This document shows, in pieces, positions 5,063 through 13,997 of a stretch of DNA of 64,000 bases (its first letter is position 1; every line of letters begins with the position of its first letter). Source of the stretch: a virus; IMG/VR virus record IMGVR_UViG_3300036715_002570, positions 62,001-126,000 of that record. One strand, 5' to 3'. The notes beneath the pieces are model-generated. The model was given only the letters and a program-made list of their open reading frames with translations, was not told where the DNA came from and ran no database searches. Made by a program: the position numbers and the translations under genes.

Positions 5063-5219
5063 GCTAACATTGTTTCTTGATACAGAGTTTTACCGACTTC
5101 GGAAGCCGAATGGAATGCAGCAGTACTACAACATTGACCCGCGCCAACACCATGCGCTCGTTGATGCAAAAGCAAACCACCATGGCTGGTGGCAAGGATA
5201 TCAGGCAGGACTACAATGA
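5061..5219 (+). CDS. 52-residue hypothetical protein
   Basis: ATG at 5061 preceded by a purine-rich AGGA; TGA at 5217-5219. It ends G-W-W-Q-G-Y-Q-A-G-L-Q and its stop overlaps the start of the ADP-ribosylglycohydrolase gene as ATGA, which implies translational coupling. Codon use matches its neighbours. Not recognised. Confidence 0.6.
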   Translation: MLTLFLDTEFYRLRKPNGMQQYYNIDPRQHHALVDAKANHHGWWQGYQAGLQ

Positions 5220-6172
5220 ATAACACGATTGACAAACTCCATGGCGGTTTATACGGCGCCTTAATTGGTGACGCCGTTGGTGTACCGTATGAGTTCAAGA
5301 CAACTCTACAGATCCCCCACCCCCCAACGATGGTTCCACCACCTAAGTTCAACCGATCGTATCTTGGCGTCCCTCCTGGCACGTGGTCTGATGACGGTGC
5401 GCTGACGCTATGTCTGATGGAATCGTTGTTGAAGGCCGACGACTGGCTGGATACCGACTGGGTGCACGCGTTCGGACACCGGATGTCAAGGTGGCGATAC
5501 GAAGGGTACATGACGCCAGACAACAAGAAGTTTGACATTGGAAACCAGACCTCGGAGGCAATCCGTCTCCTGGAGTTTGGCCTTGATCCACTCGAGCTGA
5601 CGTATACAGAATACGAAAACGGCAACGGCGGCTTGATGCGTGCACTTCCTGTTGTTCTGGCGTTGTGGAAGTCGGAAGATATCGACCTAATCTGCGCCGT
5701 CTCGGACATGCATCACATGGTGTCGCACGGCCATCCAATCTCGTTGATCTGCGGTCAAATCTACGTAATGACAGCGATCATGCTGCTGCGTGGCGATAAG
5801 TTTAACGACGCCTTCTGGGCTGCCGTTGACATTGTTGAAGCTCGGTGTGACGATACCGAATGGCAAGGGCATTTCGCTACTGTCCTTGCAGGGAAAGACG
5901 AAGAGCCTCGCGGCACGGGATACGTTGTTGACACGCTATGGTCGGCACGTTTTGCAGTGCAAAGTTCGCTGATGGGCGATAACACGTTCATGAATGCAAT
6001 CGAACGCGCCATCCTTCTCGGTAACGACACAGACACAACTGCATGCGTGGCAGGTGGATGGGCTGGTATCATCTACGGCTGGAAGGGCATTCCTCAAGAG
6101 TGGCGTGATGGGTTGCGCGGTAAAGACCTCGTTAAGCCAATGGCAGATCGACTGGTGGCACTAAATGACTGA
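5216..6172 (+). CDS. ADP-ribosylglycohydrolase (DraG/ARH family)
   Basis: 318 residues. Family motifs in order: G-A-L-I-G-D-A-V-G near the start, W-S-D-D-G (metal site, about residue 59), N-G-G-L-M-R, H-G-H-P, and L-G-N-D-T-D-T-T near residue 268, giving the second pair of Asp metal ligands. Enzymes of this family remove ADP-ribose from proteins or small molecules using two Mg or Mn ions. In a phage it could reverse host ADP-ribosylation used in defence, or recycle ADP-ribose. The window also encodes PnuC, NadR and a Nudix hydrolase, which fits an NAD/ADP-ribose theme. It overlaps the Pth2 gene by 8 nt. Confidence 0.85.
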   Translation: MNNTIDKLHGGLYGALIGDAVGVPYEFKTTLQIPHPPTMVPPPKFNRSYLGVPPGTWSDDGALTLCLMESLLKADDWLDTDWVHAFGHRMSRWRYEGYMTPDNKKFDIGNQTSEAIRLLEFGLDPLELTYTEYENGNGGLMRALPVVLALWKSEDIDLICAVSDMHHMVSHGHPISLICGQIYVMTAIMLLRGDKFNDAFWAAVDIVEARCDDTEWQGHFATVLAGKDEEPRGTGYVVDTLWSARFAVQSSLMGDNTFMNAIERAILLGNDTDTTACVAGGWAGIIYGWKGIPQEWRDGLRGKDLVKPMADRLVALND

Positions 6173-8156: not shown

Positions 8157-9296
8157 ATGACACTAATCACATACTTAACAAAAGCATACAGGAAAGCTGT
8201 AGGTTGGTTTGTTACTAAGCGCGACAACCGAATCTGGGAAGAACGGCTCGCTTCAAAGCTAAAGCTGTTCACTGCGAACGACCATGCATGGGTTACCCCC
8301 GTGTTGCAGAATGAGATTGCGTTTATTCGCAGCTCGTTCTCGAACTACAAGTTCGACTCATCACAGCAGGCGCTGCAGACAGATGAAGTGGCAACAATGG
8401 TGTTTAATGCCACTGTGTACGCATGCTTGGAACTAGTCCCTCTGAGAGGACTAGTTAGTATTCAACCATTGCAAGGTCCCGTCGGATTGGTATACCGGGC
8501 GGCGTACAAGTATCAAGATCCCGCAGTACAGGACAGCCAGTCGCTCCACCTTGAAGTGCTCAAGCACGCCGTTGAGGCAAAGACTCACAAGCTGGCAGCA
8601 AGGTTTAATGTTGAGGCAGCACAAGACTTATTCGCGATCTACGGGATTGACATCGCAGACGGGATTGCACGAGCCCTTGGTGCTGAAGTTGCGTACGAGT
8701 TGATTGCAGAGGTCCTCTGTGATTTGAACAAGATCGCAACCCACCGTCAGACAGTATCAGGCCTGCCGCACGATGACAATGCGATCATGATCAACGCAGT
8801 TGCGAATACAATTGCATCAACTACCCGTCGCGGCGCGGGCAACTTTATCGTCACATCTCCAAGGGGCGTCGCTCTACTGCAATCTGTATCGAAGAGTGGC
8901 TATGTCAAAACACCGGACTCTGAGCAGACGCACACCTATGCGCTGAGGCAAGTCGGTACTCTCAACGGCCAAATGCGTGTGTACGTGTCAATGGTTGACA
9001 TGAACGATAGTTCACCAAACATTGAATACCTGATCGGATACAAGGGTCCTAGCGACGTTGATGCGGGATACGTCTTTAGCCCGTACAATCTAGTGGTATA
9101 TAGTGGCGCCACGATTGATCCGAATACATACACCCCAATGATCAACCTCATGACTCGGTACGGTAAGACGGGTATCCAGTGTGATCCAACGACATCGAGT
9201 GAATCTGCGGATTACTACGGAGTGGTCACGGTTGAGGATGTATCGTACGCTGTCCCTGTTCCTGCGGTTGACTTACCCGCATGGGTTAGAAGATAG
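8157..9296 (+). CDS. Major capsid protein, T4 gp23-like
   Basis: 379 residues. Recognisable gp23 family blocks in order: G-L-V-S-I-Q-P-L-Q-G-P-V-G-L-V-Y (about residue 98), V-E-A-K-T-H-K-L-A-A-R-F with A-Q-D-L (about residue 140), R-G-A-G-N-F-I-V near residue 223, and the C-terminal I-G-Y-K-G-P...D-A-G-Y-V-F-S-P-Y. It forms the hexamers of the head shell in relatives. T4 gp23 is 521 residues; the shorter length here reflects missing N-terminal and insertion regions. I see no prohead protease site with certainty. A second capsid paralogue (gp24-like) elsewhere in the genome is possible. Late regulation is supported by the promoter variant. Confidence 0.85.
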   Translation: MTLITYLTKAYRKAVGWFVTKRDNRIWEERLASKLKLFTANDHAWVTPVLQNEIAFIRSSFSNYKFDSSQQALQTDEVATMVFNATVYACLELVPLRGLVSIQPLQGPVGLVYRAAYKYQDPAVQDSQSLHLEVLKHAVEAKTHKLAARFNVEAAQDLFAIYGIDIADGIARALGAEVAYELIAEVLCDLNKIATHRQTVSGLPHDDNAIMINAVANTIASTTRRGAGNFIVTSPRGVALLQSVSKSGYVKTPDSEQTHTYALRQVGTLNGQMRVYVSMVDMNDSSPNIEYLIGYKGPSDVDAGYVFSPYNLVVYSGATIDPNTYTPMINLMTRYGKTGIQCDPTTSSESADYYGVVTVEDVSYAVPVPAVDLPAWVRR

Positions 9297-9631: not shown

Positions 9632-10330
9632 ATAAACTACACTAAAATTTACCAGTCGCTCGTAACTCGAGCCAAGAATCGACCACCGCTGACTACGTAT
9701 GTTGAACGTCATCACATTCTCCCGAAGTGCATGGGTGGTTCAGATAACCTGGTTGATCTTACACAACAAGAACACTTTGTTGCTCATCAACTGCTGGTGA
9801 AAATGCACCCAGAACGTCCGTCGTTAATTTGGGCATTAGCCTGTATAATGGGCGGAGAGCGTCGAAACAACAAATATTATGGTTGGATCCGAACGTGTTT
9901 TGCTGTAGAAATGAGCAAACCAAAGTCTGTAGAAACTCGGCGTAAGATGAGTGAGTATTGGTCTGCTTATCGTAAAGCCAACCCCGTATCTGATGAAGAA
10001 CGACAACGGATGCGTGAGCGAAATCTTGGCAAAAAACTTTCCGCTGAAACCAAGGCTAAATGCAGTGCAGTGCACAAAGGTAAGGTATTCTCAGAGGAGC
10101 ATCGAGAGAATATAGGTAAGGCACGACGTGGCAAGAAAATGCCGCCAAAGACCGAAGAATATAAACAAATGCAACGTGTTTGGGCGGAGCGTAAAGCAGC
10201 TGGGGTTGCACGAGGGCCTCACATTAAACGAAGTGCTGAGGAGCTGCGCATTTATAAGCGTGAGCTTGCCCGACAACAGCGCGCTCGTAAGAAAGCTGCA
10301 CAAGTACAAATTGAGGTATCTGATGATTGA
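9632..10330 (+). CDS. HNH homing endonuclease with NUMOD3 repeats
   Basis: The frame holds N-Y-T-K-I-Y-Q-S-L, the usual N-terminus of this family, then E-R-H-H-I-L-P-K-C-M-G-G-S-D-N-L-V (HNH core), then NUMOD3-like segments (K-P-K-S-V-E-T-R-R-K-M-S, L-S-A-E-T-K-A-K-C, F-S-E-E-H-R-E-N-I-G). No ATG precedes the HNH motif: the natural first residue would be the ATA at 9632 just before N-Y-T. The ATG at 9731 would cut the motif. A late-like GATAAGTA lies at 9619. Either an unusual ATA start or a gene truncated at its 5' end. Confidence 0.65.
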   Translation: MNYTKIYQSLVTRAKNRPPLTTYVERHHILPKCMGGSDNLVDLTQQEHFVAHQLLVKMHPERPSLIWALACIMGGERRNNKYYGWIRTCFAVEMSKPKSVETRRKMSEYWSAYRKANPVSDEERQRMRERNLGKKLSAETKAKCSAVHKGKVFSEEHRENIGKARRGKKMPPKTEEYKQMQRVWAERKAAGVARGPHIKRSAEELRIYKRELARQQRARKKAAQVQIEVSDD

Positions 10331-10793
10331 AACGGAACGTAAGTTTTTGGTCACAAACGACGGCTGGAAGAAAGCTTCAGCTAAGAAGATCAAGATCAGG
10401 CAAGGCTATCTGGCAAAGTCCAAAGGGATCACAGTCCGAGTACGTATTGCCAACGAAAAGGCATTCATCACGGTCAAGGGAAAGCGTGTCAATCTCTCTT
10501 GTCCGGAGTATGAATACGAGATCCCTCTCGTTGACGCGGAAGAAATGATCACGATGAGTGTCACCCTTCTGATCGAGAAGACACGCTACCTAGTGTTCGT
10601 CAACGGGATTAAGTGGGAGATCGACGTTTTTAAGGGCGTCAACGCCGGTCTGGTAATGGCGGAGGTTGAATTCGATGAAGGTGTGGCACCTACGCTCGGT
10701 CAGTTGCCAACATGGGTTGGCACAGAAGTGTCATACGACAAGCGTTATACCAACGTATACATCGCGGAGCATGTTGTACCCCATTCTCTTTGA
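10323..10793 (+). CDS. CYTH-domain (triphosphate tunnel) protein
   Basis: 156 residues from the ATG at 10323, overlapping the HNH gene by 8 nt. It begins I-E-T-E-R-K-F-L-V, the E-x-E-R-K metal-binding signature of CYTH proteins. Alternating basic and acidic strands follow (R-V-R-I, T-V-K-G, E-Y-E-I-P, E-K-T-R-Y, E-I-D-V-F, A-E-V-E-F), typical of the eight-stranded tunnel. Relatives hydrolyse triphosphates (inorganic, thiamine or RNA 5' ends). Lying beside an RNA ligase, a role in RNA 5'-end processing is a reasonable guess. Confidence 0.8.
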   Translation: MIETERKFLVTNDGWKKASAKKIKIRQGYLAKSKGITVRVRIANEKAFITVKGKRVNLSCPEYEYEIPLVDAEEMITMSVTLLIEKTRYLVFVNGIKWEIDVFKGVNAGLVMAEVEFDEGVAPTLGQLPTWVGTEVSYDKRYTNVYIAEHVVPHSL

Positions 10794-11058: not shown

Positions 11059-11514
11059 ATGACACAACGAATGATCAAGTTTCCGAGCATCAGTCAATTC
11101 CGCAACGTTGTGCACACGGTTGTTAGCCGTGCCCAGTACGTTGGTAAGGATGAGAACGTCGAACCCGTGTTCGACGAAGCAAAGCCGCTGCCTGTCCTGC
11201 CATTTCAAGGCACAACCAAGCTGCACGGGTGCGTTCACGCAGATACTCTGATCACGCTTGCTGATGGATCACGTGAACGGATCAAGGACGTTGTACCGGG
11301 GACATCGGTTCTATCGTACGATGAACACACGCAGCAAATTGTGGTTGATGTTGTGGATTCAGTCATCGTTCAAGAGTTGGACAAGCCTTGGATTGAGTTA
11401 AGTTTCAACAACGGCACTACTCTAAAGTGCACAGTAGACCATCCTCTGCTTACCACGGAAGGTTGGGTTGCGGCCGAAGATATTACCGAAGACCATCAAT
11501 TAATCATCGATTAA
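11059..11514 (+). CDS. RNA ligase N-terminal half fused to split intein N-fragment
   Basis: ATG at 11059. The N-extein (about 57 residues) ends F-Q-G-T-T-K-L-H-G, which is motif I of Rnl2-type ligases with the nucleotidyl-accepting Lys. At Cys 11230-11232 the intein begins: C-V-H-A-D-T-L-I-T-L-A-D-G (block A), T-V-D-H-P-L-L-T-T (block B, with the TxxH residues). The frame then ends at 11514 after ~94 intein residues. The C-intein and rest of the ligase are encoded at 12335-13366. Joining the exteins gives T-K-L-H-G-T-N-A-A-V, an intact ligase motif. Trans-splicing is needed for an active ligase. Confidence 0.9.
   Translation: MTQRMIKFPSISQFRNVVHTVVSRAQYVGKDENVEPVFDEAKPLPVLPFQGTTKLHGCVHADTLITLADGSRERIKDVVPGTSVLSYDEHTQQIVVDVVDSVIVQELDKPWIELSFNNGTTLKCTVDHPLLTTEGWVAAEDITEDHQLIID
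11230..11511 (+). other. Split intein, N-terminal fragment
   Basis: Starts with Cys1; block A and block B recognised (see ligase N-half). Terminates with E-D-H-Q-L-I-I-D and a stop, the break point typical of naturally split inteins. Confidence 0.9.
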
Positions 11515-11526
11515 CCACCAACTTGG

Positions 11527-11565
11527 CATAAATGTCTCTACATTGGTTTCATGGAGATATTTATG
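11527..11565 (+). promoter_or_regulatory. Late promoter embedded in an RBS-masking hairpin
   Basis: CATAAATG is itself part of the 5' arm: TAAATGTCTCTA pairs with TGGAGATATTTA (12 bp, two G-T) across an 11-nt loop. The 3' arm holds the Shine-Dalgarno GGAGA and touches the ATG at 11563. Confidence 0.65.
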
Positions 11566-12399
11566 ACAGTAACAGAGACGTGGTTTCAGGGCAAGCGGAG
11601 CATGGATAGGTGCTTGTGTGAAAATTGTGGTGCACAATATATTCAGCGATCTTGTGACACCAGGACACGGCGCGCACGAAAATTGTCAGAGGGATTAGAT
11701 TTGTGTGCCGATTGTACTAAGATGCGACACACAGCCGCTTTGGTTGCAAATGGAATTCGAGCCTTGCGAAAGCGTACCCCTGAGCAGAGAAAACAAGATG
11801 CAGCCAATGCTGGCAGGATTTCAGCGCAGAAGCACGACCCTGCTAAAAGCAGTCGTTTTACAAATGAGCGTTGGAACCAACTTACCCGAGAAGAACAACA
11901 ACGGCGTGTCAAAAAAGCTAGTGCAGCATCTCACGAATTGCTAAAGGACCCCGTCCACGCAGCAGCTCGATATGCAAAAATCTTTGCACAAGCACAATTA
12001 GGCTACATGTCCAAGGCTCATGCTCAATTGCATGGGTTAATAGAACAATATGGTTTTGAAAGTCACGTTCAAATCAGCGCCATGCAGGTGGATGAATGTA
12101 ACCGACAGTTAAAGATTGTTGTTGAATATAATGGTGATATGTGGCACTGTAATCCAAAAACGTGGCGAGCTGACCAATATAACACTATCATTAAGATGAC
12201 AGCCGGTGAAAAATGGGCCAAGGACCGAGCGCGATATGCTTTCTTACGTAGAGCTGGATACACAGTAATTGTCATCTGGGAAAGTGGTTGGAAATTAGAC
12301 CCACAAAAATACATCGATAGAATAAAGGATACGTATGATGAAATTAGTAAGCAAAAAGAGCATTCAGAGAGAAACGTGCTACGACCTGTCAGTACATAA
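11563..12399 (+). CDS. Vsr-type (EDxHD) homing endonuclease between intein halves
   Basis: 278 residues from the ATG at 11563. N-terminal Cys motifs C-E-N-C and C-A-D-C form a zinc finger. The C-terminal domain has V-V-E-Y-N-G-D-M-W-H (catalytic E/D/H cluster), a K-D-R-A-R-Y-A-F-L segment and the closing G-Y-T-V-I-V-I-W-E-S, all typical of Vsr-like homing nucleases. Such free-standing enzymes are known between split-intein halves in phage 'fractured genes'. It would promote spread of the intein by cutting inteinless ligase genes. It overlaps the C-half start by 65 nt. Confidence 0.85.
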   Translation: MTVTETWFQGKRSMDRCLCENCGAQYIQRSCDTRTRRARKLSEGLDLCADCTKMRHTAALVANGIRALRKRTPEQRKQDAANAGRISAQKHDPAKSSRFTNERWNQLTREEQQRRVKKASAASHELLKDPVHAAARYAKIFAQAQLGYMSKAHAQLHGLIEQYGFESHVQISAMQVDECNRQLKIVVEYNGDMWHCNPKTWRADQYNTIIKMTAGEKWAKDRARYAFLRRAGYTVIVIWESGWKLDPQKYIDRIKDTYDEISKQKEHSERNVLRPVST

Positions 12400-12439
12400 T
12401 CATCACAACTTTTTTGCCAACGGTATTTGTGTTCACAAT
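12335..12439 (+). other. Split intein, C-terminal fragment
   Basis: 35 residues with the canonical H-N-H-H-N-F-F-A-N-G block F and terminal His-Asn; +1 extein residue Thr. Confidence 0.9.
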
Positions 12440-13366
12440 ACGAACGCTGCCGTAGCACACCAAGCAGGGACTACGTGGTGTCAATCTCGTGATAACATCA
12501 TTACGATGATGTCGGACAATGCTGGCTTTGCGACGTGGGTCCACTCGCAGCGCGAGTTGTTTGACTGGATGTTCTCGTACCTAAAGGCCGTCCTCAACCC
12601 AACGGATGACCAGGCGATCATGATCTTCGGTGAATGGTGTGGTGGCAGCATTCAAAAGAGCGTCGGGCTGAACCAGCTGCCGAAGATGTTCGTGGTGTTC
12701 AACATCGCCGTCGTTGATGCAGAGGGTGAGAAGGTATGGCATGGTCGACATCTGATCCCCGCCCTGTTCGATGAGATCGAGCTCCAAGGTAAGGCCATTC
12801 CCGCCCTCAAGAATACGTATCAATTTGAGACGTTCGGTATTGAGATCGACTTTGCCCGCGCATATGCAGCTCAGGAACCGTTGGCTGCAATGACGCTCGA
12901 AGTTGAGAAGGTATGCCCTGTCGCCAAGGCCCTCGGCGCTGTTCCCAATGATAAGGGAATAATCGTCGGTGAAGGGATTGTTTGGATATGCACTCACCCT
13001 GACTATCAAGATAGCAGCTATTGGTTCAAGGTGAAGGGCGACGAGCACGCTCCGAAGACAAAGGTCAAGACGCTGGCTGCGGCAGACGTTGTCCGCCTGG
13101 ACTCGATCAACGAGCTTGCGGATTTGCTGTGCCCGACGTGGCGTCTGGAACAGATGTACGAGCAAACGTTCAACACGTTGAATGGCGGTAAGCCAGACAT
13201 CAAGAGGACGGGCGAGTTCATCCGTGCAATGATGGCCGACATCGTCAAAGAGTGTTCCGATGATGTTGCGGCGTCCGGGTTTACCATGAAAGACATTAGT
13301 GGGCGCGTCAGTAAGCACGCACGAGACTATTTGATCAATCAACTGAACGCAGAAGCATTCGGTTGA
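12335..13366 (+). CDS. Split intein C-fragment fused to RNA ligase C-terminal part
   Basis: ATG at 12335 inside the endonuclease gene. The first 35 residues are an intein C-fragment: block F (Y-D-L-S-V-H-N-H-H-N-F-F-A-N-G) and block G ending V-H-N, cleavage Asn at 12437-12439. Thr is the +1 residue. The C-extein (308 residues) begins T-N-A-A-V. It carries F-G-E-W-C-G-G and later E-G-I-V-W and K-V-K-G motifs (ligase motifs III, IV and V). Combined mature ligase about 365 residues, close to Rnl2-family size. Probable role: sealing nicked RNA such as cleaved tRNA. Confidence 0.9.
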   Translation: MMKLVSKKSIQRETCYDLSVHNHHNFFANGICVHNTNAAVAHQAGTTWCQSRDNIITMMSDNAGFATWVHSQRELFDWMFSYLKAVLNPTDDQAIMIFGEWCGGSIQKSVGLNQLPKMFVVFNIAVVDAEGEKVWHGRHLIPALFDEIELQGKAIPALKNTYQFETFGIEIDFARAYAAQEPLAAMTLEVEKVCPVAKALGAVPNDKGIIVGEGIVWICTHPDYQDSSYWFKVKGDEHAPKTKVKTLAAADVVRLDSINELADLLCPTWRLEQMYEQTFNTLNGGKPDIKRTGEFIRAMMADIVKECSDDVAASGFTMKDISGRVSKHARDYLINQLNAEAFG

Positions 13367-13391: not shown

Positions 13392-13424
13392 TGCGTCATC
13401 TCTAACTCAATGAGAACACCCAAC

Positions 13425-13997
13425 ATGAAACCGTTGTTCGTCGACGCTGCCAAAGCACCGTCAATCTCTCAACTCCACGAGCAGACGTCCGTGCCGTATC
13501 CGCACAGCACGGAACTGGCCGTCCAACCTACAACTCCTGTGCGAGCGATCTCAATGTCCGACATCGACAAAGTCGGGCAGCAGACCGAGGTTCGTGTAGG
13601 TGCCACAACCAAGAAGATTCTGGATGGTGCCAAGACAAACGACGCGGGCGAGTTCGGCACCAAGCTGAACGTCCTGATCGCCACAACCAAGGAGCTGAAC
13701 CCGAAGACGATGGGTAAGCAAGGGCTGCTGTCCAAGCTCGTCCACTTCGGCGGCTCTGTCAAGGAGCGGATGTTGTCGGAGTTCGAAAGCGTGACCAAGC
13801 GCATCGAGACGCTGGTCGCAGAACTCGACCGCACGGCTACCCTGGCTGAACAGCGTGCTGACCAGTGCGATGCGCTGTTCGAGGAGAACTACCAGACGTT
13901 CCGCCAACTGGACATCGACAAAGCCACGCTCGCTTCGATGGTTGCCGAACTCAACGCACAACTCGCCAGCCTGCCGCAGGTTTCTTCGCACGGATGA
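13425..13997 (+). CDS. TelA/KlaA-like coiled-coil protein
   Basis: 190 residues from the ATG at 13425 (13410 is an alternative). The segment around N-D-A-G-E-F-G-T-K-L-N-V-L-I and L-V-H-F-G-G-S-V-K-E-R-M resembles the N-terminal part of TelA (toxic anion resistance) proteins, followed by a long coiled coil. TelA proteins are ~350-400 residues, so this and the next gene may together correspond to one family member split in two. Function in phage unknown. Confidence 0.55.
   Translation: MKPLFVDAAKAPSISQLHEQTSVPYPHSTELAVQPTTPVRAISMSDIDKVGQQTEVRVGATTKKILDGAKTNDAGEFGTKLNVLIATTKELNPKTMGKQGLLSKLVHFGGSVKERMLSEFESVTKRIETLVAELDRTATLAEQRADQCDALFEENYQTFRQLDIDKATLASMVAELNAQLASLPQVSSHG

What the first reader, a model, noticed from the sequence alone, without database searches (positions are those of the whole stretch)
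11059..13366. RNA ligase fractured inside its active-site motif by a split intein, with a Vsr-type endonuclease gene between the halves
The N-half ends T-K-L-H-G and then intein block A with Cys1. The C-half starts with a 35-residue C-intein ending His-Asn and resumes with T-N-A-A-V. Ligation restores the Rnl2-like motif I (K-x-H-G-T-N) exactly at the catalytic lysine. The gene between the halves is an EDxHD/Vsr-like endonuclease with its own late promoter. This 'fractured gene' layout is known from a few phage and metagenomic loci; in this ligase and at this motif it may be new. Each half is inactive until spliced, so splicing gates RNA repair.
Basis: partly seen in the sequence, partly recalled or inferred. 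Interest (0 to 1): 0.9.

Follow-up and report, generated by a model that had tools for sequence, protein, structure and literature searches.

The report
Phage RNA ligase split by intein
In this virus of bacteria the gene for an RNA-repair enzyme is cut in two inside the code for its active site by a mobile element, whose two protein 'stitching' halves should rejoin the enzyme after it is made; the layout is of a known kind, found here in a type of enzyme for which I saw no earlier report in the papers I could search.

Summary
Confirmed. Window 11059-13366 holds an Rnl2-like RNA ligase gene in two ORFs: N-extein (57 aa, ...KLHG) plus a 94-aa N-intein, then a 34-aa C-intein plus C-extein (TNAAV..., 308 aa), with an endonuclease gene between. 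Profile HMMs find both intein halves and the ligase; the nuclease domain models at pLDDT 96 and best matches the homing endonuclease I-Bth0305I and Vsr. The break recurs in 7 lineages of Rnl2-like ligases (one without endonuclease gene), at the equivalent motif I in 8 lineages of Rnl1-like ligases, and in one PHA02142-type ligase; one phage group has both ligases fractured. Fractured genes are scattered among intact relatives, and two contigs share the element nearly base for base within a mosaic of diverged and similar DNA, which fits homing. I read it as a mobile 'fractured gene' of the kind named by Dassa et al. 2009 in a new host gene: a new member of a known kind. Trans-splicing is inferred, not shown. 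The 'own late promoter' is not supported. 'Splicing gates RNA repair' holds only in that each half lacks part of motif I; the virus also carries a ligase of the Rnl1 kind that is intact at motif I.

The parts
11059..11229 (+). N-extein of the Rnl2-like RNA ligase (57 aa), ends in motif I K-L-H-G with the catalytic lysine
   Evidence: (54% identical to the intact ligase of L003 over 57 residues)
11230..11514 (+). N-intein (94 aa: Cys1, block B TVDH) and stop
   Evidence: profile A4 of four such N-halves finds the NrdJ-1 intein 8UBS best among solved structures, E 1.2e-10
11551..12399 (+). free-standing Vsr-fold (EDxHD-type) homing endonuclease gene (second ATG at 11563); overlaps the C-half start by 62 bp
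12034..12396 (+). nuclease domain of the endonuclease (AF2 pLDDT 96.4; I-Bth0305I / Vsr fold)
12338..12439 (+). C-intein (34 aa, ends V-H-N; alternative start 12335)
12440..13366 (+). C-extein of the RNA ligase (308 aa, starts T-N of motif I) and stop

Best explanation
A mobile 'fractured gene' element (N-intein, free-standing EDxHD-type homing endonuclease, C-intein) sits inside motif I of the one Rnl2-like RNA ligase gene found in this virus record. The two ligase halves are made as separate proteins. Their intein halves associate, Cys1 and Thr+1 carry out the standard class 1 splicing steps, the terminal Asn cyclises, and a seamless KLHG-TNAAV peptide bond restores the adenylation motif (inferred from the residues, not shown). 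The endonuclease cuts the uninterrupted ligase gene of other phages at or near the motif I codons, and repair copies the whole three-part unit across with some flanking DNA. The unit therefore spreads among phages at this one site (supported indirectly by the patchy distribution, gene-specific intein clades and a shared near-identical block), and splicing makes it nearly harmless.
For: Profile hits for both intein halves and the ligase. Cys1, a TxxH motif and a terminal HN in 7 of 7 Rnl2-like lineages (the script's automatic block B label for the window row is wrong, the sequence reads TVDH). Purifying selection between L015 and L147: dN/dS 0.14 N-extein, 0.30 N-intein, 0.17 endonuclease, 0.17 C-extein, C-intein saturated. 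Endonuclease fold: pLDDT 96.4; Foldseek ranks 1 and 2 are I-Bth0305I, rank 3 Vsr; VIA Z 9.8 and 9.3. 75 of 83 distinct ligase rows are uninterrupted at motif I; the 8 fractured rows need 7 state changes, 6 forced by starred branches, quick tree. L019/L020: 1 mismatch in the 1,263 bp of N-intein, gap, endonuclease gene and C-intein, 2 in the 99 bp before it and 3 in the 308 bp after it, against 15 in the 69 bp before that and 110 in the 598 bp after. N-inteins group by host gene. Element G+C 36-47% against 53% for the exteins.
Against: No splicing, cleavage or ligase activity was or could be measured. Intein_splicing is just over its cut-off in the N-half and under it in the C-half. The window's own element has no near-identical partner other than what looks like the same virus, so movement is inferred from relatives. 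The L019/L020 pair is a mosaic: the DNA after the ligase gene is 99% identical again, so general recombination could also have made the block. Foldseek E-values for the nuclease are weak (best 6.4e-3, none under 0.001) and mitochondrial ribosome proteins score nearly as well (ranks 4-7; Z 8.0). The intein tree has 1 starred branch of 16.
Confidence: 0.87

Rival explanations
1. The fracture has become a regulatory device: slow, conditional or late trans-splicing controls when RNA repair is available during infection.
For: Motif I is divided between two proteins, so neither half should be adenylated on the known mechanism (recalled). One lineage (L155-157) has the split intein without an endonuclease gene, so retention does not need one. 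In the L147/L221 group both RNA ligases are fractured.
Against: No promoter signal beyond chance (other kinds of control were not searched for). In 6 of 6 Rnl2-like lineages that carry the endonuclease gene, the C-half start overlaps its end (first ATG taken as start), which argues for one message. The window virus also has a ligase of the Rnl1 kind. The distribution is patchy, as for a mobile element.
Confidence: 0.12
2. A phage-against-phage weapon: the endonuclease cuts the rival's ligase gene at codons that cannot change much, so rivals either acquire the element or lose RNA repair.
For: Break sites lie in catalytic motifs of two ligase families and, read by eye, of other genes. DNA just before the junction differs in L144 from its intact relative L182 (60% identity in the last 15 bp, against 97% over 170 bp upstream), as if the target had been recoded.
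Against: Targeting of conserved motifs is equally expected of ordinary homing. No competition data exist.
Confidence: 0.2
3. A decaying intein-split pseudogene: the ligase is no longer made.
For: Related loci show decay: an endonuclease remnant in L147/L221, no endonuclease in L155, block B TGNN in the L017 ligase.
Against: In the window both halves are full length with all splicing residues. The intein half, endonuclease and exteins are under purifying selection in the one pair that could be measured. Seven lineages keep the reading frames.
Confidence: 0.05
4. Assembly or sequencing artefact, or one long intein gene broken by frameshifts.
For: N-half and endonuclease share a frame in the window and the C-half overlaps the endonuclease gene.
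Against: An identical second contig (perhaps from the same sample) and six further lineages with the break, five of them with the three-ORF layout; relative frames of the three ORFs differ between lineages.
Confidence: 0.01

Closest known systems
[quoted passage not shown] 2009, NAR 37:2560; paper not held; title seen in reference lists; content recalled)
   Same: Host gene in two ORFs, each with a split-intein half, and a free-standing EDxHD/Vsr-type endonuclease gene between them; break in a conserved motif
   Different: Host gene: Rnl1- and Rnl2-like RNA ligases, which I do not recall from that paper; one lineage here lacks the endonuclease gene
NrdJ-1 split intein (PDB 8UBS)
   Same: Best match of the N-half profile among solved structures (E 1.2e-10); 94 + 34 aa is near the usual size of split inteins (about 100-120 and 35-40 in PMC12707363, passages)
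   Different: Host protein and site (recalled: ribonucleotide reductase)
T4 RNA ligase 2 (PDB 2HVQ, 1S68)
   Same: Ligase profile match E 7.4e-10; motif EKIHGTN aligned to the junction
   Different: T4 Rnl2 is one polypeptide
Intein-containing RNA ligase of Pseudaeromonas phage KLEP7 (OM654377, UNY40322.1)
   Same: Same ligase family with an intein, annotated as such
   Different: One continuous ORF; the intein is at GEWAG|C...HN|SNIQK, not at motif I
Intein-containing RtcB family proteins (NCBIfam NF038162, NF052663)
   Same: Also inteins in RNA ligases; these models match the N-intein part weakly (E 1.4e-4 and 1.6e-4)
   Different: RtcB is an unrelated ligase family (recalled); the models are of intein-containing single proteins
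I-Bth0305I (PDB 3R3P) and Vsr (1VSR, 1CW0)
   Same: Fold of the nuclease domain
   Different: 16-22% identity; the target here would be an RNA ligase gene

Membership tests
Fractured gene (split-intein + free-standing HEG arrangement) | Host gene in two separate ORFs, each fused to one intein half | tested here: met
Fractured gene (split-intein + free-standing HEG arrangement) | Endonuclease gene between the halves | tested here: met
   11551-12399
Fractured gene (split-intein + free-standing HEG arrangement) | Uninterrupted homologues exist (empty site) | tested here: met
   75 of 83 distinct rows uninterrupted at motif I; DNA comparisons
Fractured gene (split-intein + free-standing HEG arrangement) | Trans-splicing produces the joined host protein | not testable with these tools
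   needs expression and mass spectrometry
Class 1 split intein | Cys/Ser1, block B TxxH, terminal His-Asn, Cys/Ser/Thr at +1 (list recalled) | tested here: met
   Cys1, TVDH, VHN, Thr+1 in the window; TIGR01445 and TIGR01443 over cut-off
Rnl2-type RNA ligase | Homology to T4 Rnl2, with motif I K-x-H-G-T-N once joined | tested here: met
Rnl2-type RNA ligase | RNA ligase activity | not testable with these tools
   no assay
EDxHD/Vsr homing endonuclease | Vsr-like nuclease fold | tested here: met
   Foldseek E only 6.4e-3, probability 1.00, VIA Z 9.8 and 9.3
EDxHD/Vsr homing endonuclease | Catalytic E, D, H, D residues in equivalent places | tested here: inconclusive
   D20, E31, H38 invariant and D35 nearly invariant in A6, but not superposed residue by residue on 3R3P
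EDxHD/Vsr homing endonuclease | Cuts the empty target site | not testable with these tools
   indirect support only: the identity block
T4-type late promoter in front of the endonuclease gene | TATAAATA on the coding strand in the gap upstream | tested here: not met

The most novel reading that the evidence does not exclude
Motif I of RNA ligases (K-x-[HD]-G|[TS]) is a convergent docking site for three-part mobile units: split intein halves plus EDxHD endonuclease. Gene-specific clades in two ligase families (a third by one locus) home as whole units, so that in some phages every RNA ligase seen depends on protein trans-splicing. By targeting codons that can hardly change, they may also strip rival phages of RNA repair.
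Probability: 0.3. Interest if true: 0.75.

Novelty: new member of a known kind. Interest (0 to 1): 0.56.

Why it matters
It adds Rnl1- and Rnl2-like RNA ligases to the genes carried as fractured genes and supplies about 16 lineages of natural split-intein pairs with G-T or G-S junctions, useful for protein engineering. Close relatives with and without the element give defined empty sites on which homing can be tested with a cleavage assay. It ties phage RNA repair, a counter-defence function, to a mobile element.

Tried and rejected
First HEG model on three sequences was poor (pLDDT 49) and was not searched. The profile search of the HEG against solved structures gave no usable hit (best hits E 0.006-0.008 lie at profile positions 81-168, before most of the nuclease domain; 3HRL, later the top structural match, is at E 0.13). 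Rfam at gathering threshold found no intron in eight loci (one tRNA only). A scan of bacterial and archaeal genomes with the N-half alignment gave two relatives, both intact ligases. The one phage record covering most of a fractured N-half (Klebsiella phage KP13-7) proved to be a fractured nrdA. The frameshifted-single-intein reading was rejected because relative frames differ between lineages. dN/dS for L019/L020 was planned but not computed (one search failed; one search skipped the pair). Both the A1 and A4 viral searches were capped at 80 loci (304 and 167 relatives found), the A7 search at 80 of 91.

The library did not hold Dassa et al. 2009. Statements about it are recalled, apart from its title. 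Papers: search listings (title and start of abstract) only; passages seen for PMC7090010, PMC10448857, PMC12707363, PMC12350094, PMC6801210, PMC3322345, PMC6669764, PMC7824862, PMC5259590, PMC8228797, PMC3229294. None of these listings or passages names a split or fractured RNA ligase; that is a statement about this open-access library and these searches only.

Counts and dropped rows. One search classified 185 ligase ORFs from the 220 sources: 143 intact, 29 fractured, 12 partial or interrupted elsewhere, 1 other intein (KLEP7), by pattern matching. Many are copies of one virus; 158 rows with over 230 residues of C-extein were clustered at about 90% to 83, of which 8 are fractured (L019 and L020 are two rows of one lineage). 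Because several searches used fractured queries, the fractured share is not a frequency. One search classified 80 Rnl1-like loci: 57 intact, 14 fractured (8 lineages), 9 unclear; the N-half was found in 7 of the 8 lineages (not in L227). In the intein tree 3 of 22 rows (two helicases, TerL) were dropped for short N-inteins, and L017 falls inside the Rnl1 branch. The output was cut in the middle, so its list of other fractured genes is partial.

Full report
What is there. Window 11059-11514 encodes 57 residues of an RNA ligase ending in K-L-H-G, followed by a 94-residue N-intein starting at Cys. Window 12338-13366 encodes a 34-residue C-intein ending V-H-N followed by T-N-A-A-V and the rest of the ligase. 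Between them lies an endonuclease gene, 11551-12399, whose 3' end overlaps the C-half by 62 bp. Hits over curated cut-offs support the N-intein (Pfam Intein_splicing, TIGR01445), the C-intein (TIGR01443) and the ligase (Pfam RNA_ligase); Pfam Intein_splicing on the C-half is under its cut-off. PHROG 548 RNA ligase matches the C-half at 3.7e-36. In the 150,677-base virus record (which may be a fragment) there is one match each to RNA_ligase PF09414, intein_Nterm and intein_Cterm, so no intact Rnl2-like copy was found. A ligase of the Rnl1 kind (PF09511, E 2.9e-18) lies elsewhere in the record and reads KMDGSL at motif I. No PNK3P phosphatase domain was found in the record.

The junction. Most intact relatives read K-x-H-G-T-N through the site (variants such as K-L-H-G-T-C in L003 and K-A-H-G-S-N in L100 occur), and the ligase profile aligns T4 Rnl2 EKIHGTN there. 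The adenylated lysine and H-G are in the N-half and T-N is in the C-half, so each half lacks part of motif I. That each half is inactive follows from the known mechanism of nucleotidyl transferases (recalled), and was not measured.

The endonuclease. Sequence matches are weak (Pfam MTES_1575 below its cut-off; vsr 0.036). Its nuclease domain, modelled on 43 sequences, reaches pLDDT 96.4. Foldseek ranks I-Bth0305I first and second and Vsr third (E 6.4e-3 to 9.6e-3, probability 0.99-1.00; no match under 0.001; ranks 4-7 are mitochondrial ribosome proteins). The structural aligner gives Z 10.5 for 3HRL (a putative endonuclease-like protein), 9.8 for I-Bth0305I, 9.3 for Vsr, then 8.0 for a mitochondrial ribosome protein. 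PMC12350094 (passages) uses the name EDxHD/Vsr for this endonuclease domain and cites Dassa et al. for it.

It is a recurrent arrangement. A second contig carries the identical 8.9 kb. The same break of Rnl2-like ligases occurs in seven lineages: window; L009; L015; L019/L020; L144-146; L147-154; L155-157. Six have the endonuclease gene, and in all six its end overlaps the C-half start (4 to 62 bp). The seventh (L155-157) has about 0.1 kb between the halves and no endonuclease hit. Rnl1-like ligases are broken at K-x-D-G|S in eight lineages among 80 loci classified (14 loci fractured, 57 intact, 9 unclear). A PHA02142-type ligase (L017) is broken at K-L-H-G|T-S, but its N-intein is under the Pfam cut-off, its block B reads TGNN and its C-extein is interrupted again; a search with its N-half for close relatives found only the same contig. 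Five contigs of one phage group carry both ligases fractured (L147, L150, L152, L153 and, cut off within the endonuclease gene, L154, paired with L221, L222, L224, L223, L225), the Rnl1-like one with only a remnant of an endonuclease gene. Read by eye, endonucleases of the same kind also lie between halves of DNA polymerase, helicase, terminase and ribonucleotide reductase genes, as expected for the known arrangement.

It appears to move. Among 83 distinct ligase C-exteins, 8 fractured rows need 7 changes of state, at least 6 forced by well-supported branches of a quick tree; 92 of 500 shuffles of the label were as low, so the trait is hardly clustered. The N-inteins nevertheless form one clade per host gene (Rnl2 86/93; Rnl1 84/92 with L017 inside; PolB 91/95), as expected of elements that home to one site, though only one branch of that tree is starred. 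L019 and L020 share the 1,263 bp from first intein codon to last with 1 mismatch, plus 2 mismatches in the 99 bp before and 3 in the 308 bp after; before that there are 15 in 69 bp, and from 5150 to 5747 110 in 598 bp. The upstream DNA ligase gene is 92% identical and the DNA after the ligase gene is 99% identical again. This fits homing with co-conversion of flanks, but the pair is a mosaic and general recombination is not excluded. L144 is 97% identical over 170 bp to the intact gene of L182 up to 10 bp before the site, then 72% in the C-extein and 96% in the next gene. In the window the element differs in composition from its host gene (36-47% against 53% G+C).

Selection. For L015 against L147 dN/dS is 0.14 (N-extein), 0.30 (N-intein), 0.17 (endonuclease) and 0.17 (C-extein); the C-intein is saturated. 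The window/L009 pair is saturated except for the N-intein (0.11, at dS 2.6).

What is not supported. No late-promoter motif on the coding strand before the endonuclease gene, and sigma-70-like sites in the region do not exceed chance (3 found, 3.1 expected). Regulation by splicing is untested.

Novelty. In 50,697 phage records, no record has one place covering 80% of the window N-half or of the Rnl1-like N-half of L224. For the L147 N-half one does, and it is an nrdA gene. KLEP7 has a continuous intein in the same ligase family at another site, and inteins of RtcB family proteins are modelled in NCBIfam. The paper searches show no split or fractured RNA ligase in the listings and passages seen. 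The kind of system is known; the host genes and the recurrence at motif I appear new within these searches.

Noticed in passing
L147 with L221 (IMGVR_UViG_3300025839_000011) and four sister contigs: Both RNA ligase genes (Rnl1-like and Rnl2-like) of one phage group are fractured at motif I by different split inteins; the Rnl1-like one retains only a remnant of an endonuclease gene.
   Followed up: yes
L168:4983-8384, L185:4971-7360, L163:4983-6428: Ligase genes broken at other places (before SDNAGF and before GEGIVW) into ORFs with short conserved tails (e.g. ...KLIEIEFEDGSKQLF... and MEKKIKNIKEIKT) without a Pfam intein match; in L168 a weakly GIY-YIG-like ORF lies in one break. Possibly tails that hold fragments together without splicing, or intron remnants.
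   Followed up: partly
L155:4992-6544 (also L156, L157): Split-intein ligase without any endonuclease gene between the halves (about 0.1 kb gap): perhaps a stage after its loss.
   Followed up: yes
L017:4416-8041: PHA02142-type RNA ligase in three pieces: motif I split intein with endonuclease, then a second interruption of the C-extein with a minus-strand ORF that looks GIY-YIG-like by eye.
   Followed up: partly
L303 (Klebsiella phage KP13-7, OP617745.1 29196-36645): nrdA of an isolated jumbo phage in several ORFs with split-intein-like ends and other ORFs (endonuclease-like by eye) between them; annotated mostly as hypothetical proteins.
   Followed up: partly
L021: One contig seems to hold both a fractured helicase (Walker A) and a fractured ribonucleotide reductase (read by eye).
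   Followed up: no
window 9731-10330 and 10323-10793: A NUMOD3 homing-endonuclease-like gene and a CYTH-domain gene lie between the Gp23-like major capsid gene (8157-9296) and the fractured ligase; a TelA-like gene (13410-13997) follows.
   Followed up: partly
window, 31 sites: One-mismatch copies of TATAAATA are in excess (31 against 14.25 expected), most often CATAAATA; may be this phage's late promoter motif.
   Followed up: no
L011 (Pseudaeromonas phage KLEP7): Continuous intein in the same ligase family at GEWAG|C...HN|SNIQK, so the gene has at least two intein sites.
   Followed up: yes
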